The notes beneath the pieces were generated by a model. It did not search any database. It saw only the letters and a program-made list of their open reading frames with translations, and was not told the origin of the DNA. This document shows positions 7,718 to 63,312 of a stretch of DNA of 64,000 nucleotides, in pieces (the first letter of the stretch is position 1; each line of letters opens with the position of its first letter). Source of the stretch: Annona cherimola (lineage: Eukaryota; Streptophyta; Magnoliopsida; Magnoliales; Annonaceae); the NCBI GenBank assembly GCA_030490835.1, contig CM059975.1, forward strand, positions 60,193,174 to 60,257,173, given 5' to 3'. Made by a program: the position numbers and the translations under genes.

Positions 7718-7729
7718 GCTCTGATACCA
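7718..7729 (-). promoter_or_regulatory. Primer binding site, initiator Met-tRNA
   Basis: The minus strand reads TGGTATCAGAGC two bases inside the 5' LTR. This is the usual plant copia/gypsy primer site complementary to the 3' end of initiator methionine tRNA. It fixes the direction of element A. Confidence 0.93.
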
Positions 7730-7731
7730 CT

Positions 7732-23212: not shown

Positions 23213-24860
23213 TGACGAGCTGCGTACATGTCTATTAAATTGCTCGCTATTTACGCAAGTATATGTGTCGTGTCAAGTAATAAAGAATGAGTAAAGTATC
23301 GTTCCCACGAGGATTTGTTAACCGAAATTATTATTTAGCTTAACTGCTTTTGAAGGTTATGAAATTTTAGTTTTGTGAATTAACTAAGCTAACGATTGTG
23401 AAACAGAAATCAGAGTAGAGATCACGAGACTACTAGATACTCAAAGCGAGTTTACTAATTAGGGATGATAGATGGATAGATCGGAATCCTTGAATCTAAA
23501 CTATATTGCTCTGGTTCCTGTTAAGCGGATTGCATATGAATTTACTAGCCCAAGTTCATATATCTTCATATATGTTTTTCAACAATATATAAAGCTAATT
23601 ACACCCTATTTAAGTGTTATGTTCCCATGCCATTAAATAAAGTGAAATTGATAAGTTTATAACTTGTATAATGACTACACAGGGTTTAATGGTATATTCC
23701 TATCCATTAAACAACTCTCCTTACACAAAGGTTGAAACCTGTGCCTTGCACGTGGATCTGGCAAATATCTCCCTTTTCCAAGGGTAAATAGAGCAATAAA
23801 ATTATCTTATAAGGTAGCTAATCTTGTAAAAGCATTAAACTCACACATGCAAAGGTAAATTATATGCAATCATATATATAAGCTTAAATATTCATTCCTA
23901 AATATTCTAAGAACCACGAAACAATACAGTTTATAATTCAATTCATCCTAGCTATCCATCTAATGGAGGTTTAGCTCAAAGACATGATCTTAATATCCAA
24001 TTCATCCAAATAAAAAGTATCCATAAGGAAGAGAAAGAAAATTGGAAAGAATAAGAAAAACTGTTTTCTGGCAGTTTCCACCAACGGGACTTGAATTCCT
24101 TCTTCAATATGAGCTTTAATCTTGATTCCCACTTTCTCTTGCACTATAGTTCGTTCTCCCCGCTCTCTTCCTTCTTCCTTTCGCGCACCTTACGCACTGG
24201 AATATTCGTACACGGCTACGTATTGGCGCCTAGGCGCCAACTCTCTGTGTGCGGAGCAGTTTAGACACATTCTGGAACCCTAGAGATTTTTGCACTGGCG
24301 CCTAGGCGCCAATTCCCTGAAAGTGGTTTCTAACTTGTTGTCTCAGCCATGTTTTCACTTGAGTTGCATGTTGATGAAGCGGCGCCTGGGCGCCCCTGGG
24401 TGGCGCCTAGGCGCCAACTCTCTAGACTTCATCACCAAATTTGTGGCTTCTGACTTGGATTTCATGTAGAGAAGTGGCGCCTGGGTGCCCCTGGGTGGTG
24501 CCTAGGCACCAAATCTCTGGACTGCTCCTTCATGTTAGCTGTGTGTGCTGCAAATGGTCAAGGCGTGTAGGGTGGCGCCTAGGCACCAAGTCCCTTCCTT
24601 TAGATGCCTCAGCTTGCCTTCAATTCATCCGCTCTGCTGCCGTACGTTCTGTCCTTCCTACAAAAAAAATGGAAAACTGAATAAATAAACTAAAAATGCC
24701 TAATTAATGCTAAAATTGCCTAAAAACTAATTAATGCTCGTAAAATGCAAAGCGGATGAAAATTAAGCTAAAAGAGTGCAAACTAAGCCTAATCTCTTGA
24801 ACTAACACACAAATTAAGTCTGAAATGGGCCATGATAACTCGTAAAAATACGAGTTATCA
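23213..24860 (-). repeat. Element M 3' LTR (1648 bp)
   Basis: Complete LTR beginning, on the minus strand, with the 28-bp terminal palindrome (24833-24860: 12-base arms TGATAACTCGTA and TACGAGTTATCA around AAAA). It has a string of GGCGCCTAGGCGCC palindromes at 24223-24590. LTRs N and O are older relatives. Confidence 0.8.
24223..24590. repeat. GGCGCCTAGGCGCC palindrome array
   Basis: Perfect palindromes at 24223-24240 (18 bp, TTGGCGCCTAGGCGCCAA), 24297-24310 and 24401-24416, with variants at 24381-24394, 24476-24515 and 24572-24587. Spacing is irregular at about 70-100 bp. Between units the text CAACTCTCT or CAAATCTCT often follows, so units arose by local duplication. Confidence 0.85.
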
Positions 24861-24875
24861 TACCCCCAAACTTAA
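24861..24875 (-). promoter_or_regulatory. Element M polypurine tract
   Basis: The minus strand reads TAAGTTTGGGGGTA directly before the LTR start TGATAACTCG. A second G-rich run is at 25916-25927. Position and composition fit plus-strand priming. Confidence 0.6.
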
Positions 24876-26183: not shown

Positions 26184-26202
26184 GTCCCCTGCGATCCGCC
26201 AA

Positions 26203-26473
26203 CTCCCTGCCTCTGGATGCCTCAGCTTGCTTTCAACTCGTCCGCTTTGCTGCAGTACATCCTATCCTTCCTACAAAAAAAATGGAAAATTGAATAAATA
26301 AACTAAAAATGCCTAATTAATGCTAAAATTGCCTAAAAACTAATTAATGCTCCTAAAATGCAAAGCGGATGAAAATTAAGCTAAAAGAGTGCAAACTAAG
26401 CCTAATCTCTTGAACTAACACACAAATTAAGTCTGAAATGGGCCATGATAACTTGTAAAAATATAAGTTATCA
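26203..26473 (-). repeat. Element M 5' LTR remnant
   Basis: Near-identical to 24590-24860, including the block TAAACTAAAAATGCCTAATT and a terminal palindrome with one mismatch (26446-26473). It joins the internal gene tail abruptly near 26203, so roughly 1.4 kb of LTR and the internal domain were lost together. Confidence 0.8.
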
Positions 26474-27058
26474 TACGCCTTGTAAGTTTTGAGAGAAGGT
26501 ACAAGGAAAATTTAAGGATAGTTCTCCTTTAATACATAATATCTGGATTAAATAAACACTCCATGTGTCCGTTACAAAAGACATATCTGAAATCCTTGAT
26601 CCTAGGTACTCTCAATCTTGTGATTTCTAATCCCTATTCTACATTTTACAGATCAACTTTTCTTTTTCATATTCTTTCTTCTCCTTATCTTATTTGGTTA
26701 GTAAGTGTTTAGATCCAACGTCTTAAGTCCTAAATTTCCAGTGGATCGATATTTATATACTATAATCTATGACTCGTGCACTTACGGTGAGATTGCGAAC
26801 ATAGACCTACCATCACTTTTACCACCCTTAGTATATGTTCATCGAGGCCTGGTGAGGGAGGCTCTTCCATTAAATGCTCACCTTGAGCACGATACTGCTC
26901 CCGTACTCTCTCAACTTCCCTTTCCTTTTGATTTATGCTCTCCCAACTCATTCCATGTCGGAACTGGATTTAGCCATTAGCAAACAGATACCATGGCCGC
27001 AATTTGAGGGTGTAGGAGTGGGTATCTGATCCCAAAAGGCCTAAAGCTCTCTAGCATT
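26474..27058 (-). pseudogene. Unclassified retroelement remnant, left of B
   Basis: The part nearest M continues the repeat of 22916-23212. From about 26760 to 27058 the minus strand has gag-like text (WDQIPTPTP, then SWESINQKEREVERVREQYR at about 26950-26890) that continues across B into 42545-42720. Frames are interrupted. No lineage can be assigned. GCATT at 27054-27058 is B's target site. Confidence 0.35.
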
Positions 27059-28668
27059 TGTTGGTCCCGAGTTAATGGCAATTACCCAAGAGGGGAGGGG
27101 TGAATTGGGTATTTAAAAATTTATAACTTAAACAGAAACTTTACCCCGGATTAATCTATTCCCCTTTATGAAGAAACAAAATGGAAAGCAATATAATGTA
27201 GAGAGCAGAAATATAAATCAAGCACACAAGATTTTTATAGTGGTTCGGGAAACCTCCCTACTCCACTCTTCCAAGCTCACACTCCTTGTGACTTGGGTTC
27301 CACTATTGTATTCTTCAAATACAATTAGAGCCACTACTCTCTTCTAGATTCCAGCTCTAGGGGGCTTCAACACAACACAGCACAAGTAGGTGATGAGTTC
27401 CACTTCAATCACACACTACTTTGCTTACACTTGATCTTAGTTCCTCAAACTAAGTCAAGTTCAATACAACAAAATGAAATAACAAAAGGAGTCTACACTT
27501 TACAGATGTGTAGAAGCAATTTGGCGCAGAGAAGAACTCGTAATGTAGACTTTGAAGATTCAGAAATGTAGCTCTTGCAATTTGAAGCAAAGTTCTTCCT
27601 TTTTGAATGGCTTGATCTCTTTAGAGCTCTTGAATATAGGAGTTAAGCACACTTAATGATTCTCAACTACTTCCCTCGTCCACAATGAATGCCCTTTATA
27701 ATTGTGGAGGGAATCCGAACGTTAGAAGGTAGGTGGCGCGCATTAAATGCGCCAACGTTCGAATAATTTCCGACCGTTGCGACCCAAGTCGCAGGCGGAG
27801 TCAACTTCGGATGCGACTTCACCCAAGTCGCAGATGGAGTCGACTTCGGGTGCGACTTCGCCTTCTGTTCGCAACTTCAAGTTCCAGGTCGGGTCGTCTT
27901 GGGCATGGACTTGACCCAAGTCGCAGGTGGAGTCGACTTCGGGTGCGACTTCACCTCGGCAGGAAGCTTGATGATCTTGAAAACTTGGAATGCTTTGTTT
28001 CTTGATTTCCTTTTGAATCATTGTCTTTTTTTTAGCTTGCTTGGCTTCTTTCTTTGATCATTTTTATTCTGGAATGGTTTCACATATGAATCTTGAAGAA
28101 CTTGTGTCTTGCATGGTAGATTCATGCTCCTTGCTTGCTTTTGATTCATATTGATCTTGGAACATGCTTGAAGCTTTTGTCTTGGACTTGAGAAATCCCA
28201 AGTTGATCTTCAAAAATGAACTTGAATCTGTATCTTTGATCTTTGAGAGCGTCATGTCGAACTTGGGGTCGACTTCGTCTGCGACTTCGCCCAAGTCGCA
28301 ACTGGAGTCGACTTCGACTGCGACTTCGGTATACTTCTCTCCCAAATTCAACTCTGGAATGATTTTAGCATCTGAAGTCGATGCTGGAGTCGACTTCGTT
28401 TGCGACTTGGCTTCCGAAGTCGCAAGTGGAGTCGACTTGGCCTGCGACTTCACTTGTTCTTCTCCCATTTTCAACTCTGGACAGATTTGGCTTCTTGAAG
28501 TCGATCTTGGGGTCGACTTGGAGAACGACTTGGCCTTCCATGCTTTATTTTCTTCAAATGTATGTGCCTTAAACATTTCCACAAACGTGTTAGTAGCCAA
28601 GACTTACTCAAATTGATTTGTTAATCATCAAAACATAGATTTAGCTAGTTTGCCACATATTTCCAACA
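27059..28668 (-). repeat. Element B LTR 1 (outer left)
   Basis: TGTTGGTCC to TTTCCAACA. Reading the minus strand, U3 starts at 28668. Dyad arrays lie at 28256-28530 and 27781-27957, then the promoter palindrome GCGCATTAAATGCGC (27738-27752) between AACGTTCG (27754-27761) and CGAACGTT (27716-27723), and a TATA box TTATAAAGG near 27693-27702. U5 fills the rest. It has private changes against LTRs 2 and 3, for example GGAGTCAACT for GGAGTCGACT near 27797. Confidence 0.93.
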
Positions 28669-28994
28669 ATCTCCCCCTTTTTGATGATTGACAAAACCGA
28701 TTTGAGTGTATACCTTTCAATAACGTAAAAATAATATGCTTAGCCAACTTTCAACATTTAATAAACATATGCAAACTTTTAAGTTGAAAACATTCAAACT
28801 CTTCTCCCCAACCATATCCTACTCTTCTCCCCCTTTGACTCATTTGGACTCAAATCCTACTCTTCTCCCCCTTTGGACTCATTTGGACTCAAATCCTACT
28901 CTTCTCCCCCTTTTTGTCAATATATCAAAAAGTTAGAGGGTAAAGAGATAGGTGGGTTTGCTCCCCCTAAACAGGTGCTCCCCCTAAGTTTATG
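28669..28994 (-). promoter_or_regulatory. Element B copy 1 3' UTR with several polypurine tracts
   Basis: Main polypurine tract AAAAAGGGGGAGAT (minus) at 28669-28682 next to the LTR. Toward pol, three further minus-strand AAAGGGGGAGAAGAGTAGGA tracts (28822-28910) form a 38-39-bp tandem repeat, and GGGGGAG tracts lie at 28960-28985. Confidence 0.85.
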
Positions 28995-31900
28995 CTAAGT
29001 TAATTCAATCATTCCCATGTCATTTCTAATCTTATAAAATGCTTCTTTTGCTAGGGGCTTTGTAAATATGTCTGCAACTTGATCTTCTGTTCTTACATAT
29101 ACCAAACATATGTCATGATTTTCTACATGTTCTCTAATAAAATGGTGTCTAAGGTCTATATGTTTGGTCCTAGAATGCAAGACTGGATTCTTGGTTAGAC
29201 ATATGGCACTAGTATTATCGCATCTGATGGGTATATCCTTAAAATCCATGCCATAGTCCCTAAGTTGTTGTTTCATCCAAAGTAATTGGGCACAACAGCT
29301 CCCGGCGGCAATGTATTCGTCTTCCGCCGTAGATAGAGCAACACTAGTTTGTTTTCTTGAAAATCATGAAACCAACATGCTTCCAAGAAATTGACATGTT
29401 CCACTAGTGCTTTTTCTATCTACTTTGTAACCGGCAAAATCCGCATCCGAGTAGCCGATTAGATCAAAATTAGAGCCCTTTGGATACCAAAGTCCTAAAT
29501 TGGTAGTGTCTACTAGGTAGCTGAAAATTCTTTTCACAGCTACCAAGTGTGATTCTTTTGGGCATGATTGAAATCTAGAGCACATACACACACTAAACAA
29601 TATATCAGGCCTAGAAGCAGTTAAATACAATAAAGAACCTATCATGCTTCTATACAATTTCAAATCAACTGCTTTTCCCTTCTCATCTTTGTCCATTTTG
29701 ATTGTAGAGCTCATAGGCGTGCTTGCTCCTTTGCTGTTCTCCATGCCAAACTTCTTTAGCATTTCTTTGATATACTTGGACTGGTTAATGAAGATTCCTT
29801 CATTTAGTTGCTTGATTTGTAGTCCAAGGAAGAAATTTAGCTCTCCCATCATGCTCATCTCAAATTCTTTCTGCATTAGCTCAGAAAATTCTTGGCAAAG
29901 AGTTTCATTAGTAGCACCAAAAATGATATCATCAACATAAATTTGAATGATCAAAATATCATTTTCTTTATATTTGATAAACAAAGTGGTGTCTACCTTT
30001 CCTTTTTGAAAATCGTGATCAATCAGAAATTTGCTTAGTCTATCATACCAAGCTCTTGGAGCTTGTTTTAATCCATATAGTGCTTTGGTTAACTTGTATA
30101 CAAATTTAGATTGATCTTTTTCCTCAAATCCAGGTGGTTGTTCAACATACACCTCTTCATTTATATAACCATTCAGAAATGCACTTTTAACATCCATTTG
30201 AAACAATTTAAAGTTCATGTGAGATGCAAAAGCTAGTAAGATGCGAATTGCCTCTAATCTAGCAACCGGGGCATAGGATTCCTCAAAGTCAATTCCTTCT
30301 TCTTTTGAGTATCCTTTTGCCACAAGTCTAGCTTTGTTTCTCACTACAAGTCCACTTTCATCTAATTTGTTCCTAAAGACCCACTTGGTGCCAATAACAA
30401 TACAATCTTTTGGTCTCGGAACAAGGTGCCAAACTTGGTTTCTTTCAAATTGATTTAGCTCTTCTTGCATTGCTATAATCCAGTTTTCATCATCAAGAAC
30501 TTGATCAATAATGGATGGTTCAATTTTAGATACGAAGGCATATTGTCCACAAACATTTTGCTTTGACCTTCTAGTTTTCACACCTTCATATACATTCCCT
30601 ATAACTTGTTCAATTGGATGGGCATGTTTGAATTTTAAATCAGTTGGAGGTTTGTAGGAATTATTACCTTCACTTACCCTTTCCTCCATGAAATCTTCTT
30701 GCTTTTCCACATACAGTTTTTCAAGATTGCTTGCTATATCATCTGCATCACTTAAATCATCTTTTCTTTTGAAACATGGGTTAGTTTCATCAAAAACAAC
30801 ATGTATGGACTCTTCTACCACTTGGTTTCGTTTATTGAATACTCTATATGCTTTGCTATTTGATGAGTACCCAAGGAATATTGCCTCATCACTTTTGGCA
30901 TCTAATTTTCCCAAGTTGGTTTTTTCATTGTTCAAAACATAACATGTGCATCCAAAAGCATGAAAATAAGAGATATTTGGTTTCCTTCCTTTCCATAGCT
31001 CATATGGGGTCTTTTTGAAGATTGCTTTGATGGTAACTCGATTCAAAACATGACAAGTTGTACTCACAGCTTCACCCCAAAATTTCTTGGATAATTTGCT
31101 CTCATTTAGCATTGTTCTAGCCATCTCTTGTATAGTTCTGTTTTTCCTTTCAACTACTCCATTTTGTTGTGGAGTTCTTGGTGCAGAAAATGTGTGATGA
31201 ATTCCTTTTTCATTACATAACTCTATGAATCGTTTGTTTTCAAATTCACCACCATGATCACTTCTTATAGTCATAATAGTACTTTGTTTTTCATTTTGCA
31301 CCAAATTTACAAAAGTTGAAAACATAGAGAAAGCTTCATCTTTGCTAGCTAAGAGAATTATCCATGTGAATCTTGAAAAATCATCAACAATCACAAATAC
31401 ATATATCTTTCCACCAATGGTTAAAATATCGGATGGCCCATATAGATCCATGTGTAGCAATTCAAGTGGCATAGTGGTGGAGATTTCCTTTTTGGTAGAG
31501 AAAGGCATCTTAGGTTATTTTGATAATTGACATGCCTTGCAAATTTTATCCTTGTCATATTTCAACTTAGGCAAGCCTTCTACCAAACTCTTCTTCCATA
31601 GGGTCTTTATATTTCCCATGTTTATATGTCCAAGCCTTTTGTGCCAAACCCATGGATCATTATCAATGGCCATTAGACATTGACCATCTAGTTCATCAAG
31701 TGAAACCAAATATACATTTCCATGTCTTTTTCCACTAAACATGATATGTTCTCCATCAAATACATTACATATAGATGATTCAAACACAACCTTATATCCT
31801 TTGTCACATAATTGACTAATGCTCATTAGATTGTGCTTGAGTCCTTCAACAAATAAAACATCTTCCATGCATGCATTAGAAATACTATAGATGTTTCCTT

Positions 31901-32090
31901 TACCTTTAATTTTACCTTTCTCATTATTTCCAAAGGCAACTGTTCCATCGTTGCAAGGCTTAAGTTTATGGAATAAACTTCTTTCTCCGGTCATATGCCT
32001 TGAACAACCGCTATCCATGAACCTTACATTGTTTGCCTTTGCCTTAAAACATATTTGAAAAATAAACAAGTAAATATTATCTCTTTGGTA
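28995..32090 (-). pseudogene. pol: Element B copy 1 pol, two nonsense codons
   Basis: One frame from the gag overlap to MIELT. Protease motif MDSGCSRHMTGE; integrase zinc region HKRLGHIN ... CKACQLSK; catalytic region [17 protein letters not shown] and [12 protein letters not shown]; reverse transcriptase [24 protein letters not shown] and IYVDDIIF; RNase [28 protein letters not shown]. Stops are TAA at 31515-31517 (CAA in A, within SKQPK) and TGA at 29364-29366 (TGG in A, within SWFSRK). STAEAEY of A is STAEDEY here. Apart from these changes the frame is open, so the element was probably active not long ago. Confidence 0.93.
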
Positions 32091-32139
32091 CCCATTTTAT
32101 GGGTCCATTTGGGTTAGTAATATAATTCAATTTTTTCTG

Positions 32140-33948
32140 CTATAACTTAGAAAGCCCAAATCTTATATTTCTTGGAACCCAAACTAATTTTGCACCATGG
32201 TCATATAATTTCTTAAAGTTACACTTATAGGCTTTACGACCCATTTTATTGCAGAAATTGCAAGCCATAGGTAATCTTGGAGTAGGCCTCCAATTATGCA
32301 ATGGTTCAAACGTTGGCCTTCTAGTCCACATAATGTTTTTCCTTTGTGGCTTGTATATAGGTGCAGTTTTAGTTTGATATTTTCCACGTATTGACACATT
32401 TGATTTGCCACTTTCTTTTTGCTCAAATGTATAATATCCAAGGCCTCTTTTATTTGTTTGAGCAGTCATGTTCAGAAACATCTTCATATTTTCTCCGGGA
32501 TTAGAGAACTTTGCTAATGATTCATTTAAGGATTCGTTCTCCTTTTTCAATTTCTCTATTTCTTTCAATATTGATTCATTTTCCTCTTTCAGTTTTGTTG
32601 TTCTTTCAGCTAGTTTGTCATTTTCAATAATAACGAAGTTACATTGTTGTCTCTTTAATGACAACTTGTTTCCTAGCTTTTTGATTTCCTCATATAATGA
32701 ATCATAAGCAATTTGTAGTTCTTCTAATTCAGCACATTTGAGGCATTCTTGAAGAGAAGAATAACTTGATTGAGAATAGCAAGGTTTGGAAGTTACCTCT
32801 TCATTGCTTGTGCATTTTGTTGAGATGGTTTGTTCTTCCAAAACTTCAGTTGTGTTCAAACATAACAAGTCTTCTTCTTGTTCGATCCGTGCCATGCAGC
32901 AAATTCTTGCACAATTTGCCGCCTCAAATTCGTCGGTTGAGGAGCTGCTTGTTGATGAAGTCTCTTCATTGACGTACATGCCTCTTCCCTTTGGCCTTTG
33001 GTATTTTCTGCCTTTATGTCCTTCCTTCCTTTCTTGATACTCTTTTGATTTCTCTTCCGGCGTAGGACATTGAGCTTGCATGTGTCCTATCCCGCCGCAT
33101 TTGTAGCACTTCGTTGGCTCCTTCTTCTTCTCTCTTCGTGTTCTTTCTTTGAAGTCCTTGAAGTTCCTTTCTTTTCTCACAAATTTTCGGAATTTGCGAG
33201 TGAGAAGTGCAATATCTTCATTATCATTTTGAGAAGAGGAGGTAGACTCTTCTGAGTTGTGTGCCGCCTTTAATGCAATGGCTTTCTTCCCTTTGTGATT
33301 GTCTTCGTTTCTTCTCTTAATTAGCTCATGTGACATTAATGAGCTAATTAGATCTTCTAGCTTTAGTGTATTTAGGTCTTTGGCTTCTTCAATTGCCGTA
33401 ATCTTTGGAGTCCAAGATTCCGGTAGAGCTCTTAGTATCTTCATGACCTGTTCGGATTCAGAGATAGCCTTTCCAAGTCCTTTCAAAGCGTTAGTAATCT
33501 TAGAAAATCTAGCAAACATCTCAGAAATATTTTCTGTTTCTAACATTCTAAAGCTTTCCAATTCTCCTATCAAAATATTTCTCCTAGTCCCTTGGACTTG
33601 AGAGGTTCCTTCATAAATGGATGTTAGAGTATCCCATATTTCTTTAGCGGTTTGACAAGATGATACTCTATCATATTCGGAAGCTGTAAGAGCACAAAAT
33701 AGTGAGTTCATAGCTTTAGCATTGCTCTTTACAGTTCTTACTTCCTCTTCGGTCCACTTGGAAGCTCTTTCATCTATAGGCAATGTTACACCATCTTGGA
33801 TTGCAATCCAAGAGTCCATGTCGGTAGCCATGATGAGTTGCTTCATTCGAAGCTTCCAATAGCCGAAATTGTTCCCATCAAACAATGGTGGCCTAGTAAA
33901 TGATTGGCCCTCGGCAAAAGCGGGAACGGAAGTAGATTGGGATGCCAT
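32140..33948 (-). pseudogene. gag: Element B copy 1 gag, ends 21 codons early
   Basis: The same protein as copy 2 (39015-40886) up to residue 601-602, where TTAGAGCA-type sequence is changed so that the codon after LSKL is a stop (GCTATAACTT here, GCTCTAACTT in copy 2, plus strand). It loses only the last 21 residues, downstream of both knuckles. Whether the shortened gag would still reach the pol overlap is doubtful, since the overlap lies after the new stop. Confidence 0.9.
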
Positions 33949-33982
33949 ATGATTAGATCTCTTTGGTTTAACTCAAAGACCT

Positions 33983-33994
33983 GCTCTGATACCA
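33983..33994 (-). promoter_or_regulatory. Primer binding site, B copy 1
   Basis: Minus-strand TGGTATCAGAGC two bases from LTR 2, complementary to initiator methionine tRNA. Confidence 0.93.
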
Positions 33995-33996
33995 CT

Positions 33997-35606
33997 TGTT
34001 GGTCCCGAGTTAATGGCAATTACCCAAGAGGGGAGGGGTGAATTGGGTATTTAAAAATTTATAACTTAAACAGAAACTTTACCCCGGATTAATCTATTCC
34101 CCTTTATGAAGAAACAAAATGGAAAGCAATATAATGTAGAGAGCAGAAATATAAATCAAGCACACAAGATTTTTATAGTGGTTCGGGCAACCTCCCTACT
34201 CCACTCTTCCAAGCTCACACTCCTTGTGACTTGGGTTCCACTATTGTATTCTTCAAATACAATTAGAGCCACTGCTCTCTTCTAGATTCCAGCTCTAGGG
34301 GGCTTCAACACAACATAGCACAAGTAGGTGATGAGTTCCACTTCAATCACACACTACTTTGCTTACACTTGATCTTAGTTCCTCAAACTAAATCAAGTTC
34401 AATACAACAAAATGAAATAACAAAAGGAGTCTACACTTTACAGATGTGTAGAAGCAATTTGGCGCACAGAAGAACTCGTAATGTAGACTTTGAAGATTCA
34501 GAAATGTAGCTCTTGCAATTTGAAGCAAAGTTCTTCCTCTTTGAATGGCTTGATCTCTTTAGAGCTCTTGAATATAGGAGTTAAGCACACTTAATGATTC
34601 TCAGCTACTTCCCTCGTCCACAATGAATGCCCTTTATAATTGTGGAGGGAATCCGAACGTTAGAAGGTAGGTGGCACGCATTAAATGCGCCAACGTTCGA
34701 ATAATTTCCGACCGTTGCGACCCAAGTCGCAGGCGGAGTCGACTTCGGATGCGACTTCGCCCAAGTCGCAGATGGAGTCGACTTCGGGTGCGACTTCGCC
34801 TTCTCTTCGCAACTTCAAGTTCCAGGTCGGGTCGACTTGGGCATGGACTTGACCCAAGTCGCAGGTGGAGTCGACTTCGGGTGCGACTTCACCTCGGCAG
34901 GAAGCTTGATGATCTTGAAAACTTGGAATGCTTTGTTTCTTGATTTCCTTTTGAATCATTGTCTTTTTTTTAGCTTGCTTGGCTTCTTTCTTTGATCATT
35001 TTTATTCTGGAATGGTTTCACATATGAATCTTGAAGAACTTGTGTCTTGCATGGTAGATTCATGCTCCTTGCTTGCTTTTGATTCATATTGATCTTGGAA
35101 CATGCTTGAAGCTTTTGTCTTGGACTTGAGAAATCCCAAGTTGATCTTCAAAAATGAACTTGAATCTGTATCTTTGATCTTTGAGAGCGTCAAGTCGAAC
35201 TTGGGGTCGACTTCGTCTGCGACTTCGCCCAAGTCGCAACTGGAGTCGACTTCGACTGCGACTTCGGTATACTTCTCTCCCAAATTCAACTCTGGAGTGA
35301 TTTTAGCATCTGAAGTCGATGCTGGAGTCGACTTCGTTTGCGACTTGGCTTCCGAAGTCGCAAGTGGAGTCGACTTGGCCTGCGACTTCACTTGTTCTTC
35401 TCCCATTTTCAACTCTGGACAGATTTGGCTTCTTGAAGTCGATCTTGGGGTCGACTTGGAGAACGACTTGGCCTTCCATGCTTTATTTTCTTCAAATGTA
35501 TGTGCCTTAAACATTTCCACAAACGTGTTAGTAGCCAAGACTTACTCAAATTGATTTGTTAATCATCAAAACATAGATTTAGCTAGTTTGCCACATATTT
35601 CCAACA
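33997..35606 (-). repeat. Element B LTR 2 (central, shared)
   Basis: The central LTR serves as 5' LTR for copy 1 and 3' LTR for copy 2. Dyad arrays at 34719-34895 and 35194-35468. On both sides it abuts internal sequence (primer site left, polypurine tract right), so it has no target duplication of its own. By eye it is closer to LTR 3 than to LTR 1. Confidence 0.93.
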
Positions 35607-35932
35607 ATCTCCCCCTTTTTGATGATTGACAAAACCGATTTGAGTGTATACCTTTCAATAACGTAAAAATAACATGCTTAGCCAACTTTCAACATTTAAT
35701 AAACATATGCAAACTTTTAAGTTGAAAACATTCAAACTCTTCTCCCCAACCATATCCTACTCTTCTCCCCCTTTGACTCATTTGGACTCAAATCCTACTC
35801 TTCTCCCCCTTTGGACTCATTTGGACTCAAATCCTACTCTTCTCCCCCTTTTTGTCAATATATCAAAAAGTTAGAGGGTAAAGAGATAGGTAGGTTTGCT
35901 CCCCCTAAACAGGTGCTCCCCCTAAGTTTATG
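35607..35932 (-). promoter_or_regulatory. Element B copy 2 3' UTR with several polypurine tracts
   Basis: Same as copy 1: polypurine tract at 35607-35620 and the three AAAGGGGGAGAAGAGTAGGA tracts at 35760-35848. It differs by isolated bases (for example near 35675 and 35891). Confidence 0.85.
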
Positions 35933-38900
35933 CTAAGTTAATTCAATCATTCCCATGTCATTTCTAATCTTATAAAATGCTTCTTTTGCTAGGGGCTTTG
36001 TAAATATGTCTGCAACTTGATCTTCTGTTCTTACATATACCAAACATATGTCATGATTTTCTACATGTTCTCTAATAAAATGGTGTCTAAGGTCTATATG
36101 TTTGGTCCTAGAATGCAAGACTGGATTCTTGGTTAGACATATGGCACTAGTATTATCGCATCTGATGGGTATATCCTTAAAATCCATGCCATAGTCCCTA
36201 AGTTGTTGTTTCATCCAAAGTAATTGGGCACAACAGCTCCCGGCGGCAATGTATTCGTCTTCCGCCGTAGATAGAGCAACACTAGTTTGTTTTCTTGAAA
36301 ATCATGAAACCAACATGCTTCCAAGAAATTGACATGTTCCACTAGTGCTTTTTCTATCTACTTTGTAACCGGCAAAATCCGCATCCGAGTAGCCGATTAG
36401 ATCAAAATTAGAGCCCTTTGGATACCAAAGTCCTAAATTGGTAGTGTCTACTAGGTAGCTGAAAATTCTTTTCACAGCTACCAAGTGTGATTCTTTTGGG
36501 CATGATTGAAATCTAGAGCACATACACACACTAAACAATATATCAGGCCTAGAAGCAGTTAAATACAATAAAGAACCTATCATGCTTCTATACAATTTCA
36601 AATCAACTGCTTTTCCCTTCTCATCTTTGTCCATTTTGATTGTAGAGCTCATAGGCGTGCTTGCTCCTTTGCTGTTCTCCATGCCAAACTTCTTTAGCAT
36701 TTCTTTGATATACTTGGACTGGTTAATGAAGATTCCTTCATTTAGTTGCTTGATTTGTAGTCCAAGGAAGAAATTTAGCTCTCCCATCATGCTCATCTCA
36801 AATTCTTTCTGCATTAGCTCAGAAAATTCTTGGCAAAGAGTTTCATTAGTAGCACCAAAAATGATATCATCAACATAAATTTGAATGATCAAAATATCAT
36901 TTTCTTTATATTTGATAAACAAAGTGGTGTCTACCTTTCCTTTTTGAAAATCGTGATCAATCAGAAATTTGCTTAGTCTATCATACCAAGCTCTTGGAGC
37001 TTGTTTTAATCCATATAGTGCTTTGGTTAACTTGTATACAAATTTAGATTGATCTTTTTCCTCAAATCCAGGTGGTTGTTCAACATACACCTCTTCATTT
37101 ATATAACCATTCAGAAATGCACTTTTAACATCCATTTGAAACAATTTAAAGTTCATGTGAGATGCAAAAGCTAGTAAGATGCGAATTGCCTCTAATCTAG
37201 CAACCGGGGCATAGGATTCCTCAAAGTCAATTCCTTCTTCTTTTGAGTATCCTTTTGCCACAAGTCTAGCTTTGTTTCTCACTACAAGTCCACTTTCATC
37301 TAATTTGTTCCTAAAGACCCACTTGGTGCCAATAACAATACAATCTTTTGGTCTCGGAACAAGGTGCCAAACTTGGTTTCTTTCAAATTGATTTAGCTCT
37401 TCTTGCATTGCTATAATCCAGTTTTCATCATCAAGAACTTGATCAATAATGGATGGTTCAATTTTAGATACGAAGGCATATTGTCCACAAACATTTTGCT
37501 TTGACCTTCTAGTTTTCACACCTTCATATACATTCCCTATAACTTGTTCAATTGGATGGGCATGTTTGAATTTTAAATCAGTTGGAGGTTTGTAGGAATT
37601 ATTACCTTCACTTACCCTTTCCTCCATGAAATCTTCTTGCTTTTCCACATACAGTTTTTCAAGATTGCTTGCTATATCATCTGCATCACTTAAATCATCT
37701 TTTCTTTTGAAACATGGGTTAGTTTCATCAAAAACAACATGTATGGACTCTTCTACCACTTGGTTTCGTTTATTGAATACTCTATATGCTTTGCTATTTG
37801 ATGAGTACCCAAGGAATATTGCCTCATCACTTTTGGCATCTAATTTTCCCAAGTTGGTTTTTTCATTGTTCAAAACATAACATGTGCATCCAAAAGCATG
37901 AAAATAAGAGATATTTGGTTTCCTTCCTTTCCATAGCTCATATGGGGTCTTTTTGAAGATTGCTTTGATGGTAACTCGATTCAAAACATGACAAGTTGTA
38001 CTCACAGCTTCACCCCAAAATTTCTTGGATAATTTGCTCTCATTTAGCATTGTTCTAGCCATCTCTTGTATAGTTCTGTTTTTCCTTTCAACTACTCCAT
38101 TTTGTTGTGGAGTTCTTGGTGCAGAAAATGTGTGATGAATTCCTTTTTCATTACATAACTCTATGAATCGTTTGTTTTCAAATTCACCACCATGATCACT
38201 TCTTATAGTCATAATAGTACTTTGTTTTTCATTTTGCACCAAATTTACAAAAGTTGAAAACATAGAGAAAGCTTCATCTTTGCTAGCTAAGAGAATTATC
38301 CATGTGAATCTTGAAAAATCATCAACAATCACAAATACATATATCTTTCCACCAATGGTTAAAATATCGGATGGCCCATATAGATCCATGTGTAGCAATT
38401 CAAGTGGCATAGTGGTGGAGATTTCCTTTTTGGTAGAGAAAGGCATCTTAGGTTATTTTGATAATTGACATGCCTTGCAAATTTTATCCTTGTCATATTT
38501 CAACTTAGGCAAGCCTTCTACCAAACTCTTCTTCCATAGGGTCTTTATATTTCCCATGTTTATATGTCCAAGCCTTTTGTGCCAAACCCATGGATCATTA
38601 TCAATGGCCATTAGACATTGACCATCTAGTTCATCAAGTGAAACCAAATATACATTTCCATGTCTTTTTCCACTAAACATGATATGTTCTCCATCAAATA
38701 CATTACATATAGATGATTCAAACACAACCTTATATCCTTTGTCACATAATTGACTAATGCTCATTAGATTGTGCTTGAGTCCTTCAACAAATAAAACATC
38801 TTCCATGCATGCATTAGAAATACTATAGATGTTTCCTTTACCTTTAATTTTACCTTTCTCATTATTTCCAAAGGCAACTGTTCCATCGTTGCAAGGCTTA

Positions 38901-39028
38901 AGTTTATGGAATAAACTTCTTTCTCCGGTCATATGCCTTGAACAACCGCTATCCATGAACCTTACATTGTTTGCCTTTGCCTTAAAACATATTTGAAAAA
39001 TAAACAAGTAAATATTATCTCTTTGGTA
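35933..39028 (-). pseudogene. pol: Element B copy 2 pol, same two nonsense codons
   Basis: Domain order and motifs as in copy 1. Stops at 38453-38455 (TAA) and 36302-36304 (TGA) correspond exactly to those of copy 1. The pol frame runs back to about 39028, overlapping the end of gag (stop at 39015) in the +1 frame. The catalytic residues of protease, integrase and reverse transcriptase look unchanged; the RNase H change A to D in STAEDEY is shared with copy 1. Confidence 0.93.
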
Positions 39029-40886
39029 CCCATTTTATGGGTCCATTTGGGTTAGTAATATAATTCAATTTTTTCTGCTCTAACTTAGAAAGCCCAAATC
39101 TTATATTTCTTGGAACCCAAACTAATTTTGCACCATGGTCATATAATTTCTTAAAGTTACACTTATAGGCTTTACGACCCATTTTATTGCAGAAATTGCA
39201 AGCCATAGGTAATCTTGGAGTAGGCCTCCAATTATGCAATGGTTCAAACGTTGGCCTTCTAGTCCACATAATGTTTTTCCTTTGTGGCTTGTATATAGGT
39301 GCAGTTTTAGTTTGATATTTTCCACGTATTGACACATTTGATTTGCCACTTTCTTTTTGCTCAAATGTATAATATCCAAGGCCTCTTTTATTTGTTTGAG
39401 CAGTCATGTTCAGAAACATCTTCATATTTTCTCCGGGATTAGAGAACTTTGCTAATGATTCATTTAAGGATTCGTTCTCCTTTTTCAATTTCTCTATTTC
39501 TTTCAATATTGATTCATTTTCCTCTTTCAGTTTTGTTGTTCTTTCAGCTAGTTTGTCATTTTCAATAATAACGAAGTTACATTGTTGTCTCTTTAATGAC
39601 AACTTGTTTCCTAGCTTTTTGATTTCCTCATATAATGAATCATAAGCAATTTGTAGTTCTTCTAATTCAGCACATTTGAGGCATTCTTGAAGAGAAGAAT
39701 AACTTGATTGAGAATAGCAAGGTTTGGAAGTTACCTCTTCATTGCTTGTGCATTTTGTTGAGATGGTTTGTTCTTCCAAAACTTCAGTTGTGTTCAAACA
39801 TAACAAGTCTTCTTCTTGTTCGATCCGTGCCATGCAGCAAATTCTTGCACAATTTGCCGCCTCAAATTCGTCGGTTGAGGAGCTGCTTGTTGATGAAGTC
39901 TCTTCATTGACGTACATGCCTCTTCCCTTTGGCCTTTGGTATTTTCTGCCTTTATGTCCTTCCTTCCTTTCTTGATACTCTTTTGATTTCTCTTCCGGCG
40001 TAGGACATTGAGCTTGCATGTGTCCTATCCCGCCGCATTTGTAGCACTTCGTTGGCTCCTTCTTCTTCTCTCTTCGTGTTCTTTCTTTGAAGTCCTTGAA
40101 GTTCCTTTCTTTTCTCACAAATTTTCGGAATTTGCGAGTGAGAAGTGCAATATCTTCATTATCATTTTGAGAAGAGGAGGTAGACTCTTCTGAGTTGTGT
40201 GCCGCCTTTAATGCAATGGCTTTCTTCCCTTTGTGATTGTCTTCGTTTCTTCTCTTAATTAGCTCATGTGACATTAATGAGCTAATTAGATCTTCTAGCT
40301 TTAGTGTATTTAGGTCTTTGGCTTCTTCAATTGCCGTAATCTTTGGAGTCCAAGATTCCGGTAGAGCTCTTAGTATCTTCATGACCTGTTCGGATTCAGA
40401 GATAGCCTTTCCAAGTCCTTTCAAAGCGTTAGTAATCTTAGAAAATCTAGCAAACATCTCAGAAATATTTTCTGTTTCTAACATTCTAAAGCTTTCCAAT
40501 TCTCCTATCAAAATATTTCTCCTAGTCCCTTGGACTTGAGAGGTTCCTTCATAAATGGATGTTAGAGTATCCCATATTTCTTTAGCGGTTTGACAAGATG
40601 ATACTCTATCATATTCGGAAGCTGTAAGAGCACAAAATAGTGAGTTCATAGCTTTAGCATTGCTCTTTACAGTTCTTACTTCCTCTTCGGTCCACTTGGA
40701 AGCTCTTTCATCTATAGGCAATGTTACACCATCTTGGATTGCAATCCAAGAGTCCATGTCGGTAGCCATGATGAGTTGCTTCATTCGAAGCTTCCAATAG
40801 CCGAAATTGTTCCCATCAAACAATGGTGGCCTAGTAAATGATTGGCCCTCGGCAAAAGCGGGAACGGAAGTAGATTGGGATGCCAT
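39015..40886 (-). CDS. gag: Element B copy 2 gag, full length (623 aa)
   Basis: The best-preserved gene in the window. It encodes the nucleocapsid/capsid protein of a copia retrotransposon. The start MASQSTSVPAFAEG is shared with A and C. Residues 20-210 carry the copia gag (UBN2-type) pattern: PPLFDGNNFGYWKLRM, then KEIWDTLTSIYEG and ILRALPESW. Zinc knuckle CYKCGGIGHMQAQC is at 281-294, a serine-rich acidic linker at 329-345, and a coiled coil at about 404-478 with regular leucines. A second knuckle, CNFCNKMGRKAYKC (563-576), has arginine where element A has the histidine. It ends GPIKWVPKR. The long coiled-coil gag is typical of SIRE-like elements. Expression today is unknown. Confidence 0.92.
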   Translation of the reverse strand: MASQSTSVPAFAEGQSFTRPPLFDGNNFGYWKLRMKQLIMATDMDSWIAIQDGVTLPIDERASKWTEEEVRTVKSNAKAMNSLFCALTASEYDRVSSCQTAKEIWDTLTSIYEGTSQVQGTRRNILIGELESFRMLETENISEMFARFSKITNALKGLGKAISESEQVMKILRALPESWTPKITAIEEAKDLNTLKLEDLISSLMSHELIKRRNEDNHKGKKAIALKAAHNSEESTSSSQNDNEDIALLTRKFRKFVRKERNFKDFKERTRREKKKEPTKCYKCGGIGHMQAQCPTPEEKSKEYQERKEGHKGRKYQRPKGRGMYVNEETSSTSSSSTDEFEAANCARICCMARIEQEEDLLCLNTTEVLEEQTISTKCTSNEEVTSKPCYSQSSYSSLQECLKCAELEELQIAYDSLYEEIKKLGNKLSLKRQQCNFVIIENDKLAERTTKLKEENESILKEIEKLKKENESLNESLAKFSNPGENMKMFLNMTAQTNKRGLGYYTFEQKESGKSNVSIRGKYQTKTAPIYKPQRKNIMWTRRPTFEPLHNWRPTPRLPMACNFCNKMGRKAYKCNFKKLYDHGAKLVWVPRNIRFGLSKLEQKKLNYITNPNGPIKWVPKR

Positions 40887-40920
40887 ATGATTAGATCTCT
40901 TTGGTTTAACTCAAAGACCT

Positions 40921-40932
40921 GCTCTGATACCA
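40921..40932 (-). promoter_or_regulatory. Primer binding site, B copy 2
   Basis: Minus-strand TGGTATCAGAGC two bases inside LTR 3. Confidence 0.93.
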
Positions 40933-40934
40933 CT

Positions 40935-42544
40935 TGTTGGTCCCGAGTTAATGGCAATTACCCAAGAGGGGAGGGGTGAATTGGGTATTTAAAAATTTAT
41001 AACTTAAACAGAAACTTTACCCCGGATTAATCTATTCCCCTTTATGAAGAAACAAAATGGAAAGCAATATAATGTAGAGAGCAGAAATATAAATCAAGCA
41101 CACAAGATTTTTATAGTGGTTCGGGCAACCTCCCTACTCCACTCTTCCAAGCTCACACTCCTTGTGACTTGGGTTCCACTATTGTATTCTTCAAATACAA
41201 TTAGAGCCACTGCTCTCTTCTAGATTCCAGCTCTAGGGGGCTTCAACACAACATAGCACAAGTAGGTGATGAGTTCCACTTCAATCACACACTACTTTGC
41301 TTACACTTGATCTTAGTTCCTCAAACTAAATCAAGTTCAATACAACAAAATGAAATAACAAAAGGAGTCTACACTTTACAGATGTGTAGAAGCAATTTGG
41401 CGCACAGAAGAACTCGTAATGTAGACTTTGAAGATTCAGAAATGTAGCTCTTGCAATTTGAAGCAAAGTTCTTCCTCTTTGAATGACTTGATCTCTTTAG
41501 AGCTCTTGAATATAGGAGTTAAGCACACTTAATGATTCTCAGCTACTTCCCTCGTCCACAATGAATGCCCTTTATAATTGTGGAGGGAATCCGAACGTTA
41601 GAAGGTAGGTGGCACGCATTAAATGCGCCAACGTTCGAATAATTTCCGACCGTTGCGACCCAAGTCGCAGGCGGAGTCGACTTCGGATGCGACTTCGCCC
41701 AAGTCGCAGATGGAGTCGACTTCGGGTGCGACTTCGCCTTCTCTTCGCAACTTCAAGTTCCAGGTCGGGTCGACTTGGGCATGAACTTGACCCAAGTCGC
41801 AGGTGGAGTCGACTTCGGGTGCGACTTCACCTCGGCAGGAAGCTTGATGATCTTGAAAACTTGGAATGCTTTGTTTCTTGATTTCCTTTTGAATCATTGT
41901 CTTCTTTTTAGCTTGCTTGGCTTCTTTCTTTGATCATTTTTATTCTGGAATGGTTTCACATATGAATCTTGGAGAACTTGTGTCTTGCATGGTAGATTCA
42001 TGCTCCTTGCTTGCTTTTGATTCATATTGATCTTGGAACATGCTTGAAGCTTTTGTCTTGGACTTGAGAAATCCCAAGTTGATCTTCAAAAATGAACTTG
42101 AATCTGTATCTTTGATCTTTGAGAGCGTCAAGTCGAACTTGGGGTCGACTTCGTCTGCGACTTCGCCCAAGTCGCAACTGGAGTCGACTTCGACTGCGAC
42201 TTCGGTATACTTCTCTCCCAAATTCAACTCTGGAGTGATTTTAGCATCTGAAGTCGATGCTGGAGTTGACTTCGTTTGCGACTTGGCTTCCGAAGTCGCA
42301 AGTGGAGTCGACTTGGCCTGCGACTTCACTTGTTCTTCTCCCATTTTCAACTCTGGACAGATTTGGCTTCTTGAAGTCGATCTTGGGGTCGACTTGGAGA
42401 ACGACTTGGCCTTCCATGCTTTATTTTCTTCAAATGTATGTGCCTTAAACATTTTCACAAACGTGTTAGTAGCCAAGACTTACTCAAATTGATTTGTTAA
42501 TCATTAAAACATAGATTTAGCTAGTTTGCCACGTATTTCCAACA
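40935..42544 (-). repeat. Element B LTR 3 (outer right, 5' LTR of the whole array)
   Basis: Followed by the GCATT duplication. Same layout as LTR 1, with arrays at 41657-41833 and 42132-42406. Private changes include GGAGTTGACT near 42266 and CATTTTCACAAACG near 42451. Confidence 0.93.
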
Positions 42545-42729
42545 GCATTAACCTGATCTGTAGGCACAGACAGAAATGGGCGTGGCTTAGGCTGAGGAGT
42601 TAGGATGACTTCAGTTCTAGGAGCCCTGCTGGTGGACTCTCCTGGATTATACCCATTTTGCATGTGGTGGATCTCAATTGTTCTTGGTATCACACAGACC
42701 GAGATGGTTGCAGACTAGGGCCCACCTCT
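42545..42729 (-). pseudogene. Unclassified retroelement remnant, right of B
   Basis: The minus-strand frame from about 42663 reads MQNGYNPGESTSRAPRTEVI, then TPQPKPRPFLSVPTDQVNA and continues across B into 27058 (RE, stop, AFWDQIPTPTP). It looks like the start of a gag-type protein; the family is not recognised. Confidence 0.35.
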
Positions 42730-42909
42730 ACTTATGGTTGAGTCACTATGGGAAGGTCAGAGGCCAGCGACACCCTCCATGAAATAGGAGCAGGATCATG
42801 GACGACCGCGCGAGCTAGCGGTGCTGTCACATTGATGGTTTCTTTCCTATAAAAGGATGATCACTTGGTACGTGTCACCTACTAGAGGCTTGGAGACACA
42901 TATGCATAT
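42730..42909 (+). repeat. LTR-like repeat P, left part (host of F)
   Basis: Shares GATCACTTGGTACGTGTCAC and a GCGAGCTAGCG block with LTRs E and G in the same orientation as G. It ends at F's target site CATAT (42905-42909) and resumes at 60684. Confidence 0.45.
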
Positions 42910-45900
42910 TGTGATACCCAGACCAAAGTAAAACTTATATATATGCATTTGGCATTTAAATAAGAATCATGTATGATTTATTTGAATTATGAATGATTTT
43001 CTTTGCAATTTTGATGATTTAATTGCAATTAGGGCAAATGGTTATGAATGTTGATTATAAGCGATATGGGTCAATATAATTAAAGTGGCCTAATGAGGAT
43101 TGAAAAGTATTAGTATGTCATCAATAATTAATTTAATTTTCATGATGTGATTAATGAAAATTAAGAGGCCAATTATAGAGTTAAGTTGGGAAATGTTAGA
43201 AAATTCATAACTGGATGCCTGTAAGGCGGATTAAGATAAAAATTGAAAGAGAAGCACATAATTTCGTGCTTAATTTTATGGAAAGGTTGTATTATGAATA
43301 TTTTGATGGGATTAGGGTAATAATTGATCATTTCTGTCCAAAATCCAAAGATGATTTCCAATGATCATAACTTGAGACAGAAAAGTCGGATTGAGACGAA
43401 ATTTGAAATGGACGGATAAAATTATGAGATCGAAGCTATGAAAGGATTGGATTAAGAAAAGTGTGGTGGAATCATGCTTGCATAAAAAAGGTGTGCACCA
43501 TCGACTTTTGTGCACCATAAAGTAGCTTGCATTTAAGTTAAAGTTAAAGTGATTAATTAAATAATTAATGGCACAAATGAGTATCAAAAGGGGGTAATTA
43601 CACATGAATTTTATGAATTTTCTAAAATAACAAAATCCATGATAATATCAAGGGATTAATGATATGATTTAAGGAGCTAAGGGGTTAGCTCAAAGGAGCT
43701 TGAAGAGGTGGCATCCCATGGACGATCAAAGGGCTGTTTACATGAAATTTTTCATTCTTAAAAAATGAAAAATATGCATTTAAATGACCTAGGCAGCTAG
43801 GGTGATATATGGACGTGATATGGGTTAATTTTTGTGGCAAGAAAATGTCATAAGGTCAATGACAAGAGGACATCTCCATGTGGACAGCAACATGTAGCTA
43901 TGGAGAGGTGCACGTTCAAGCTGGTGTTTGGAATTTTTTATGATTCTCTTTAAATGCCGAATGGACAGATAAGTAAGCTAATTATCTAGGGTAATTAAAT
44001 ACCCATAAATTAAAGCTGAAATAGGTGTGAAAAAATTACAAAAGGCTGCTGCAACTGACGTCCCATGTGGGACAGATTTGTGTTGATCAATGCCATGGAT
44101 TTTTGATGGATTTTATTAAGATAATTATCTAATTTACTTGGAGCATATTGTGCCATGTCATTAAAGGGGATAAGAATGCCTTAATTACCCTCTAAATGTG
44201 GTGGCAAGTGGGCCCAAAAATCTGGAAAATCAGGGGCTTACATAAGGGTGGATGACCATGTGATATGGGTTGTTTTGAGAGAGAAAAATTCTAAGGAGAG
44301 AAACCCCCAAGCAAGGCAGCAGAAAGAACGAACCAAGTCCAGCAAGAAAAAGGGGAAAAAGAGGAGAAAAAGAGAAGGAAAAGGGGGAAGAAAGAAAGGG
44401 ATTCAAGCTAGAGAAGTTGAGTTCAAGTGTGATTCAATACAAGTAAGTATACTTCATGATTTGAGTTCTTTAATCCTAAGTTTCTTACCTCAAATTATGG
44501 GTCATGAATTTGATTCATAATGAACCCTTAAAGGATGATTAATGATGCCCTTGATTAGGGTATTGAATGAAGATTGAATGACAAGAATGAAATTAAGGGT
44601 TCAAGAGGAAGAAAATGGAGATCAGGGTTGAATATGAGTTGATAAACCTAGCTGAAATTTGCTTAAACCCACATGTGATGTTGATGTTTTAATTTATTAT
44701 CATTATTATACTATGAATCATGATTTAATAAATTATATATGTTGATTTGGGTATAAGACATGAACCCTAGAAAGCATGAAACTTAGGGTTACGTATATGA
44801 CTGGATTTTCATGATTTTATGATATGTATGAAGTATGAATTATGCTAATGATTTATGGGTGTTATGGAGGGTAAAATACCCCATGTTTAAGGTACTTTGA
44901 GTGTCCAAAAGGGTTTGAAATGATTATCCCTAAATCGGATTTTATGAACATATGTTTGGACACGTCAAAATGGGTCAAATGGATACCCAATATGTGTAAA
45001 GATATTACTGTTATGGAAGAAAACGAATTATAGATTTTAAATATGTGATAATATCCTAAATTTGGGTTAAGAAAAGCATGATTAATTGCTAAAATTAGTG
45101 GATTATAAATCTGTTAAGATTTAAGTATTGAAAGAGGAGTTGAAAGGATGGAAAATGGGTCCAAATGTTGCTCTTTTGGGAACCCAATGATGAATGGATT
45201 AAAATTTCAAAATTAAACCCTAAATTATATGTTAATTAAGGGTTTTAATCATGCTGAATAAGGATACAAGTTGCGAACTTGAGAAATTTTAAGAAAACCT
45301 AAGTTATGTGTTGTATGATGGGTGTATGTGGAAGGCTAAGTATGGATAAGTAGTAAATAGTTTATATGAACTGCTAAAATGCAAAAATGCATGAATATGT
45401 GATGAAATTTATGTTTAAGTTGTTGTTTTGATGATTAAGGATAATCTTAAAATTTGAGATTTAATTATGAAGCCTAAGACGTCAAATATGTACTTAAAAT
45501 GAGCACCGACGTAGGAACTATGAAAGATAGATGAAAAATGATAAATGGGAGGGATGAACCCCAATGTGATGATAAATGAATGGCTATTAATTGTATGAAT
45601 GTATATCCTACATACGAGTTTAGAACATGCCATAGAATGAAAGAAATGATGAATGATGAACCACTAACTCAGATTACATAGTTATGTGGTTATCAAAAGA
45701 CTTGAGTAAGTCAATATATATATATATGACCATTGACAAGGTTGAATATGGATATGCATTTCAAAGAAAGATTGATTTAAAGTTAATTAGTTGTAGACCA
45801 TATGAGTTTAAACCCATATGACACGTATATGTGAATTGAAAAAGAAACAAGGCATGCAAACACAACATGTAATGAAAATGTATAACGTAATTATGTTTAC

Positions 45901-58196: not shown

Positions 58197-58475
58197 GAGG
58201 TAAGCAAGCACAACTTTGAAAATGTGATTTTATTGCTTCACTGTAAGCAAGCAATCCTTTTGAAAATGATGATTTGTAAGCAAGCTTTTTAAAATGTGAT
58301 TTTATTGTTTCATTGTAAGCAAGCAAACTTTTTTAAAATATGATTTTATTACTTCATTGTAAGCAAGTAATCCTTTTGAAAATGATGATTTGTAAGCAAG
58401 CAAAGCTTTTGAAAATGTGATTTTATTGATTTATTGTAAGCAAGCAAACCCTTTTGAAAATATGATTTTATTCCC
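58197..58475. repeat. Minisatellite in LTR G
   Basis: About six GTAAGCAAGCAA units, each followed by CTTTTGAAAATG-type text, alternating between a long form (with TGATTTTATT) and a short form (with ATGATTTG). LTRs E and F carry one unit at the same place. Confidence 0.85.
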
Positions 58476-60678: not shown

Positions 60679-60683
60679 CATAT

Positions 60684-63310: not shown

Positions 63311-63312
63311 AG

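What the first reader, a model, noticed from the sequence alone, without database searches (positions are those of the whole stretch)
27059..42544. Head-to-tail tandem retrotransposon sharing a central LTR
Three LTRs of identical length (1610 bp) and two internal domains of identical length (5328 bp) sit between one GCATT duplication, period exactly 6938 bp. The internals differ at few sites, while LTR 1 differs from LTR 3 more clearly. This separates two dates: the insertion (LTR 1 against LTR 3) and a later duplication (internal 1 against internal 2). Unequal recombination between LTRs of allelic or sister copies is the simplest route. Both internals share the same two nonsense codons, so retrotransposition of the second copy is unlikely.
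Basis: partly seen in the sequence, partly recalled or inferred. Interest (0 to 1): 0.75.

Follow-up and report, generated by a model that had tools for sequence, protein, structure and literature searches.

The report
Tandem retrotransposon with hybrid middle LTR
A plant jumping gene was doubled head to tail after it had landed, most likely by misaligned recombination between its two end repeats; this kind of structure is already known, but here the middle repeat still shows which parent end repeat each half came from.

Summary
The element lies on the minus strand and is a Ty1-copia element with Sirevirus hallmarks. Internals differ at 3/5328 sites, outer LTRs at 22/1610. The central LTR has no private base; its left half groups with LTR3 and its right half with LTR1, as one LTR-LTR crossover predicts, with the switch at 34835-34846. 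Three of 22 sites do not fit and are read as later outer-LTR mutations. So the tandem most likely formed after insertion. A second array in the same genome (C2, TSD ATTTC, four internals) shows a compatible pattern. Tandem LTR retrotransposons are a known, common kind in plants, but PMC11899658 left their mode of origin open. An assembly join of two haplotypes would look the same; my search for another haplotype did not complete.

The parts
27054..27058 (.). target-site duplication GCATT, left
27059..28668 (-). LTR1 (3' LTR of the array in element sense)
28669..33996 (-). internal domain 1, 5328 bp
28671..28678 (-). terminal polypurine octamer AGGGGGAG followed by AT and LTR1; five more octamers begin at 28827, 28865, 28904, 28961, 28978
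29364..31514 (-). pol piece with integrase core and reverse transcriptase (716 aa stop-to-stop frame, ends at a stop shared with internal 2)
31515..32096 (-). pol piece with Pol_BBD and GAG-pre-integrase (193 aa stop-to-stop frame, ends at a stop shared with internal 2)
32140..33972 (-). gag frame, 610 aa, cut by a stop found in internal 1 but not internal 2; pol lies in the +1 frame relative to gag
   Evidence: frame relation worked out from the coordinates
33983..33991 (-). primer binding site TATCAGAGC (spacer AGTGG at 33992-33996)
33997..35606 (-). LTR2, shared central LTR; chimera: left part LTR3-type, right part LTR1-type
34835..34846 (.). inferred crossover interval inside LTR2 (LTR offsets 839-850), within a tandem-repeat module at 34723-34894
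35607..40934 (-). internal domain 2, 5328 bp, 3 differences from internal 1
36302..38452 (-). pol piece of internal 2 with integrase core and reverse transcriptase
38453..39034 (-). pol piece of internal 2 with Pol_BBD and GAG-pre-integrase
39015..40910 (-). gag frame of internal 2, 631 aa, overlaps the pol frame
40921..40929 (-). primer binding site of internal 2
40935..42544 (-). LTR3 (5' LTR of the array in element sense)
42545..42549 (.). target-site duplication GCATT, right

Best explanation
One Sirevirus-type copia element inserted on the minus strand and made the GCATT duplication. Its two LTRs then accumulated mutations. Much later the right LTR of one copy of the locus paired with the left LTR of another copy (sister chromatid or homologue), and a crossover at LTR offset about 839-850 produced LTR-internal-LTR-internal-LTR; the reciprocal product would be a solo LTR. 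Shown: structure, single target-site duplication pair, near-identical internals, chimeric central LTR in the predicted order. Inferred: that the partner was a sister or homologue and that the event was one reciprocal exchange.
For: Outer LTRs differ at 22/1610 but internals at 3/5328, Fisher p 1e-11. LTR2 has 0 of 22 private sites; under a star tree that has probability 1e-4. LTR2 is LTR3-like on the left and LTR1-like on the right with 3 of 22 exceptions, permutation P 0.005 in the predicted direction; the reverse order leaves 8 exceptions at best. Polarised with 21-29 relative LTR alignments per site from 10-11 loci, LTR2 shares states rare in relatives with LTR3 at 320 (1 of 29), 471 (0 of 29), 680 (1 of 26) and, more weakly, 809 (7 of 26), and with LTR1 at 970 (2 of 23). 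Trees with 15 relative LTRs: left half LTR2+LTR3 99%, right half LTR2+LTR1 86% ultrafast bootstrap. The shared stops occur in 0 of 15 and 1 of 15 relative alignments. A second array of the family, C2:92545108-92569592 with TSD ATTTC, has four internals (first one truncated) with the same internal deletion; its three longer internals differ at 1-2 of 4585, its outer right LTR from the inner ones at 7-8 of 1666. The 7 sites at which that outer LTR departs from all three inner ones lie in the right half, and at 1619 and 1664 the inner LTRs share derived states.
Against: Three of the 22 LTR sites (552, 1197, 1301) do not fit one switch and must be later mutations of the outer LTRs or conversion; 1.4 such mutations are expected from the internal rate, P of 3 or more 0.16. 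At 552, 8 of 28 relative alignments carry LTR3's base, so its polarity is soft; at 1301 relatives are mixed, though 0 of 22 carry LTR1's base. Polarity depends on the alignment in places: against the window's own related copy, the multiple alignment gave LTR1's base at 543 and 1301, which the BLAST tally did not bear out for 543. Shared-derived support on the right rests on one site (970). The split point of the trees was chosen from the same data. A false join of two haplotypes would give the same sequence, and the search for an alternative haplotype contig did not complete.
Confidence: 0.78

Rival explanations
1. Assembly artefact: the two haplotypes of a single element were joined end to end at the LTR.
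For: It predicts the same chimeric LTR and the 3 internal differences as heterozygosity; no reads or second haplotype could be examined (genome search did not complete).
Against: No N in the window; the join would have to lie within a 1.6-kb LTR whose two versions differ at 22 sites; the self-comparison of the window listed no copy (120 bp or longer) of the immediate flanks inside the array; a second array with four internals of the same family exists in the assembly, which two haplotypes alone would not give. The rice case TLI1 was confirmed with spanning long reads (PMC11899658).
Confidence: 0.1
2. The element inserted as a ready-made tandem (read-through transcript of a one-LTR circle, or template switching during reverse transcription).
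For: PMC11899658 keeps insertion as a tandem open for rice; one TSD pair flanks the array.
Against: All LTRs and internals would then be equally old: 22/1610 against 3/5328 and the zero private sites of LTR2 contradict it unless 5.3 kb of internal was homogenised afterwards; LTR2 would not share derived states with different neighbours in its two halves.
Confidence: 0.04
3. A one-LTR circle, excised from this element or a sister copy, re-integrated by homologous recombination into the resident element.
For: It gives the same anatomy and chimera if the circle came from the same locus.
Against: It needs two steps where one crossover suffices; a circle from one of the other family copies examined is excluded, since their aligned internal pieces are at most 96.6% identical.
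Confidence: 0.06
4. Nested insertion of a second family member into the first.
For: The family does this: at C1:52536342-52552681 an element sits in another in the same orientation with its own CTATG duplication.
Against: Here LTR2 adjoins the exact PBS and PPT ends of the two internals and has no duplication of its own; the internals share the same two stops.
Confidence: 0.01

Closest known systems
Tandem LTR-retrotransposons sharing internal LTRs (rice TLI1, TLI2; IDENTAM survey, PMC11899658; abstract, text parts 1-3 of 6, the Discussion and search passages seen)
   Same: Alternating LTRs and internals, begin and end with an LTR, one TSD pair, no inner TSD.
   Different: For the locus it studied, that paper could not decide between insertion as a tandem and later recombination; here the internal/LTR discordance and the chimeric central LTR favour later recombination. 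Most rice tandems there are gypsy; this one is copia of the Sirevirus kind.
[quoted passage not shown] passages seen)
   Same: Same arrangement; 10 such elements among 2,263 structures in A. thaliana.
   Different: The passages seen give no central-LTR chimera test.
Tandemly arrayed TRIM and Cassandra elements (PMC4717578, PMC7215508; passages seen)
   Same: L3I2 and longer arrays; for TRIMs, TSDs around the array.
   Different: Those are short elements without coding domains.
Sirevirus genus of Ty1-copia elements (PMC2829016; passages seen)
   Same: PPT octamer, repeated PPTs, AT/TG attachment site, PBS spacer AGTGG, inverted repeat round the PPT, pol in +1 frame; C-rich LTR end compatible.
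   Different: The repeated palindrome of the LTR is AGTCGACT-like and lacks the CGG-CCG core.

Membership tests
Tandem LTR-retrotransposon sharing an internal LTR | Alternating LTRs and internals, starting and ending with an LTR | tested here: met
Tandem LTR-retrotransposon sharing an internal LTR | One TSD pair around the whole array, none inside | tested here: met
   GCATT
Tandem LTR-retrotransposon sharing an internal LTR | Structure carried by single long reads | not testable with these tools
   no reads held
Product of LTR-LTR unequal crossover | Central LTR is right-LTR type on its left and left-LTR type on its right | tested here: met
   3 of 22 sites are exceptions
Product of LTR-LTR unequal crossover | Internals younger than the outer LTR pair | tested here: met
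   3/5328 against 22/1610
Product of LTR-LTR unequal crossover | Single-copy or solo-LTR alleles in other individuals | not testable with these tools
   one genome only; own-genome flank searches not answered (and repeats)
Ty1-copia | gag, integrase before reverse transcriptase (RVT_2) | tested here: met
Sirevirus | PPT octamer AGGGGGAG 10 bp before the 3' LTR, then AT/TG | tested here: met
   against PMC2829016
Sirevirus | Several identical PPT octamers clustered near the 3' LTR | tested here: met
   6 in each internal, within 320 bp of the LTR
Sirevirus | PBS TATCAGAGC with long spacer ATTGG or AGTGG | tested here: met
Sirevirus | Inverted repeat flanking the PPT/3' LTR junction | tested here: met
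   29-nt arms with one gap, 0 of 500 single-base shuffles reach the score
Sirevirus | C-rich integrase signal near the LTR 3' end | tested here: inconclusive
   two C4 runs at 33 and 38 bp from the end; the motif alignment of the paper was not seen
Sirevirus | Palindromic repeated LTR motif with CGG-CCG core | tested here: inconclusive
   palindromic AGTCGACT repeats without that core; Tnd-1 in the paper's table also lacks it
Sirevirus | Reverse transcriptase tree placement | not tested
   no named Sirevirus reference set was compared

The most novel reading that the evidence does not exclude
This Sirevirus family may be prone to post-insertion tandem amplification because the GTCGAC-rich tandem-repeat module in its LTR acts as a recombination hot spot: of the 13 insertions examined that have a PPT-side LTR match, 2 are tandem arrays, and the one mapped crossover falls in that module.
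Probability: 0.1. Interest if true: 0.55.

Novelty: new member of a known kind. Interest (0 to 1): 0.36.

Why it matters
Tandem LTR retrotransposons are common in plants, and PMC11899658 (2025) left open whether they insert as tandems or arise later by recombination. This locus shows that the question can be put to a single assembly with two checks: are the internals younger than the outer LTR pair, and is the central LTR a left/right chimera? Two arrays of one family point the same way (later recombination), although the second array's chimera evidence is thinner. Such arrays also show DNA gain by the mechanism usually cited for DNA loss (solo LTRs).

Tried and rejected
Insertion as a ready tandem was rejected on the age discordance and the chimera. 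Nested insertion was rejected on the junctions and the absence of an inner TSD; a true nested same-orientation pair was seen at C1:52536342 for contrast. Retrotransposition of a second copy was rejected because both internals share stops that 0 of 15 and 1 of 15 relative alignments carry. The crossover interval inside the repeat module as a sign of a hot spot: the module rows cover about 27% of the LTR, so one breakpoint proves nothing. The C2 array's breakpoint can only be placed between LTR sites 90 and 848, so it does not help. tRNA and Rfam scans of the window listed nothing; of 8 open frames sent to Pfam (chosen) one had a match, a zinc knuckle at 20322-20963. The protein search scored 7986 candidates (a capped set) and listed 120; those named with an organism are plant proteins; it added only the classification. 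Paper searches with the terms 'central LTR' and 'chimeric LTR' beside tandem and retrotransposon terms found 0 papers; other wordings may exist.

Full report
What is there. The window lies at G000:C5:60193174-60257173 of a 791.8-Mb assembly in 1370 contigs. Three LTRs (27059-28668, 33997-35606, 40935-42544; 1610 bp each) and two internals (28669-33996, 35607-40934; 5328 bp each) alternate with period 6938; GCATT flanks the whole array once on each side, and LTR2 meets the PBS end of internal 1 and the PPT end of internal 2 with no duplication of its own. The window holds no N.

Identity. The element is on the minus strand. Open-frame pieces, searched apart, match copia-type gag with a zinc knuckle, Pol_BBD, GAG-pre-integrase, integrase core and RVT_2. 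The PPT octamer AGGGGGAG with AT before the 3' LTR, six octamers per internal and PBS TATCAGAGC with spacer AGTGG, the inverted repeat round the PPT, and pol in the +1 frame relative to gag (worked out from the coordinates) match the Sirevirus description in PMC2829016 (passages). The C-rich LTR end is compatible but its motif could not be compared, and the LTR palindrome lacks the CGG-CCG core. Reverse-transcriptase tree placement was not tested. That the host is a plant is inferred from this and from the organism names.

State of the genes. Both internals share stops at 31515/38453 and 29364/36302; internal 1 has one more at 32140-32142 that internal 2 lacks. Among relative alignments a stop occurs at the first shared position in 0 of 15, at the second in 1 of 15, at the third in 0 of 11. 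So the shared stops mark both internals as copies of one damaged element.

Two ages. LTR1-LTR3 22/1610, LTR1-LTR2 14, LTR2-LTR3 8, internals 3/5328; Fisher p 1e-11 for outer LTRs against internals. With recalled plant rates of 7e-9 and 1.3e-8 per site and year, the insertion is about 0.5-1.0 million years old and the internal split about 20-40 thousand years, with wide limits (4-118 thousand). If the exchange was between homologues, the 3 differences may be older heterozygosity, so the duplication may be younger still.

The hybrid LTR. A crossover between the right LTR of one copy and the left LTR of another must leave a central LTR that is right-type on its left and left-type on its right. 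LTR2 has no private base. It is LTR3-like at 14 and LTR1-like at 8 of the 22 sites; one switch between offsets 839 and 850 explains 19 of 22, permutation P 0.005, while the opposite order leaves 8 exceptions at best. Relatives give 21-29 alignments per site, from 10-11 loci, so they are not all independent. LTR2 shares states rare among them with LTR3 at 320 (1 of 29), 471 (0 of 29), 680 (1 of 26) and, more weakly, 809 (7 of 26), and with LTR1 at 970 (2 of 23). In trees with 15 relative LTRs, LTR2 joins LTR3 in the left half (99%) and LTR1 in the right half (86% ultrafast bootstrap). The split point for these trees was chosen from the same data, so they are not an independent test.

What does not fit. 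The three exceptions (552, 1197, 1301) are states of one outer LTR alone; 1.4 later LTR mutations are expected, P of 3 or more 0.16. At 552, 8 of 28 relative alignments carry LTR3's base; at 1301 relatives are mixed, with LTR1's base in 0 of 22. Against the window's own related copy, the multiple alignment gave LTR1's base at 543 and 1301; the BLAST tally, with that copy included at 543, did not bear this out for 543.

A second array. C2:92545108-92569592, with ATTTC on both sides, holds a 164-bp left LTR fragment, four internals (the first truncated) and four full-length LTRs, period 6251; the internals share one deletion. Inner LTRs differ by 1-2 of 1666, the outer right LTR from them by 7-8; the three longer internals differ by 1-2 of 4585. 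The 7 sites at which the outer LTR departs from all three inner ones are at 848 or beyond (chance about 0.007), and inner LTRs share derived states at 1619 and 1664. The truncated first internal has 4 private sites in its comparable part, so it split off somewhat earlier than the rest. This fits repeated unequal exchange, but the breakpoint is only placed between 90 and 848.

How common. One search scored only the best 40 of 10,856 candidates. Thirteen insertions there have a match reaching 1640-1642 of the query, that is, the PPT-side internal next to the LTR. For these 13 the other side of the LTR was examined: the window, seven single or nested insertions and the C2 array (matches of 150 bp or more), and four by short flanks. 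Two of 13 are tandem arrays. Three further LTR hits without the PPT-side match, also, were not.

What is known. [quoted passage not shown] PMC11899658, abstract, text parts 1-3 of 6 and Discussion). PMC11899658 states that both insertion as a tandem and later recombination remain possible. The present locus is a new member of this known kind, with clear evidence for later recombination.

Doubt that remains. A false join of two haplotypes would leave the same letters. The flank searches for another haplotype contig did not complete, and no reads are held.

Noticed in passing
window 452-9351: Another, single member of the same family in the same orientation, about 89% identical over the long alignments, with LTRs at 452-2396 (with an insert near 1050-1335) and 7732-9351; it served as an outgroup.
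   Followed up: partly
window about 51640-53325 and 61620-64000: Further LTR-like pieces of the same or a related family in the opposite orientation.
   Followed up: no
window 42908-47237 and 48039-60681: Three segments of 42908-47237 recur in order at 91-93% identity at 48039-49617, 54730-56523 and 59692-60681, as if a second copy had been split by two insertions.
   Followed up: no
window 24586-24866 and 26199-26479: A 281-bp direct repeat, 93.6% identical, just left of the array.
   Followed up: no
window 20322-20963: A 214-aa open frame on the minus strand with a zinc-knuckle match, perhaps a gag remnant of another element.
   Followed up: no
G000:C1:52536342-52552681: Element nested in another of the same family in the same orientation with its own CTATG duplication: resembles a tandem but is a nested insertion.
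   Followed up: partly
G000:C2:92545108-92569592: Array of four internals; its first unit has lost most of the left LTR and part of the internal by one deletion.
   Followed up: partly
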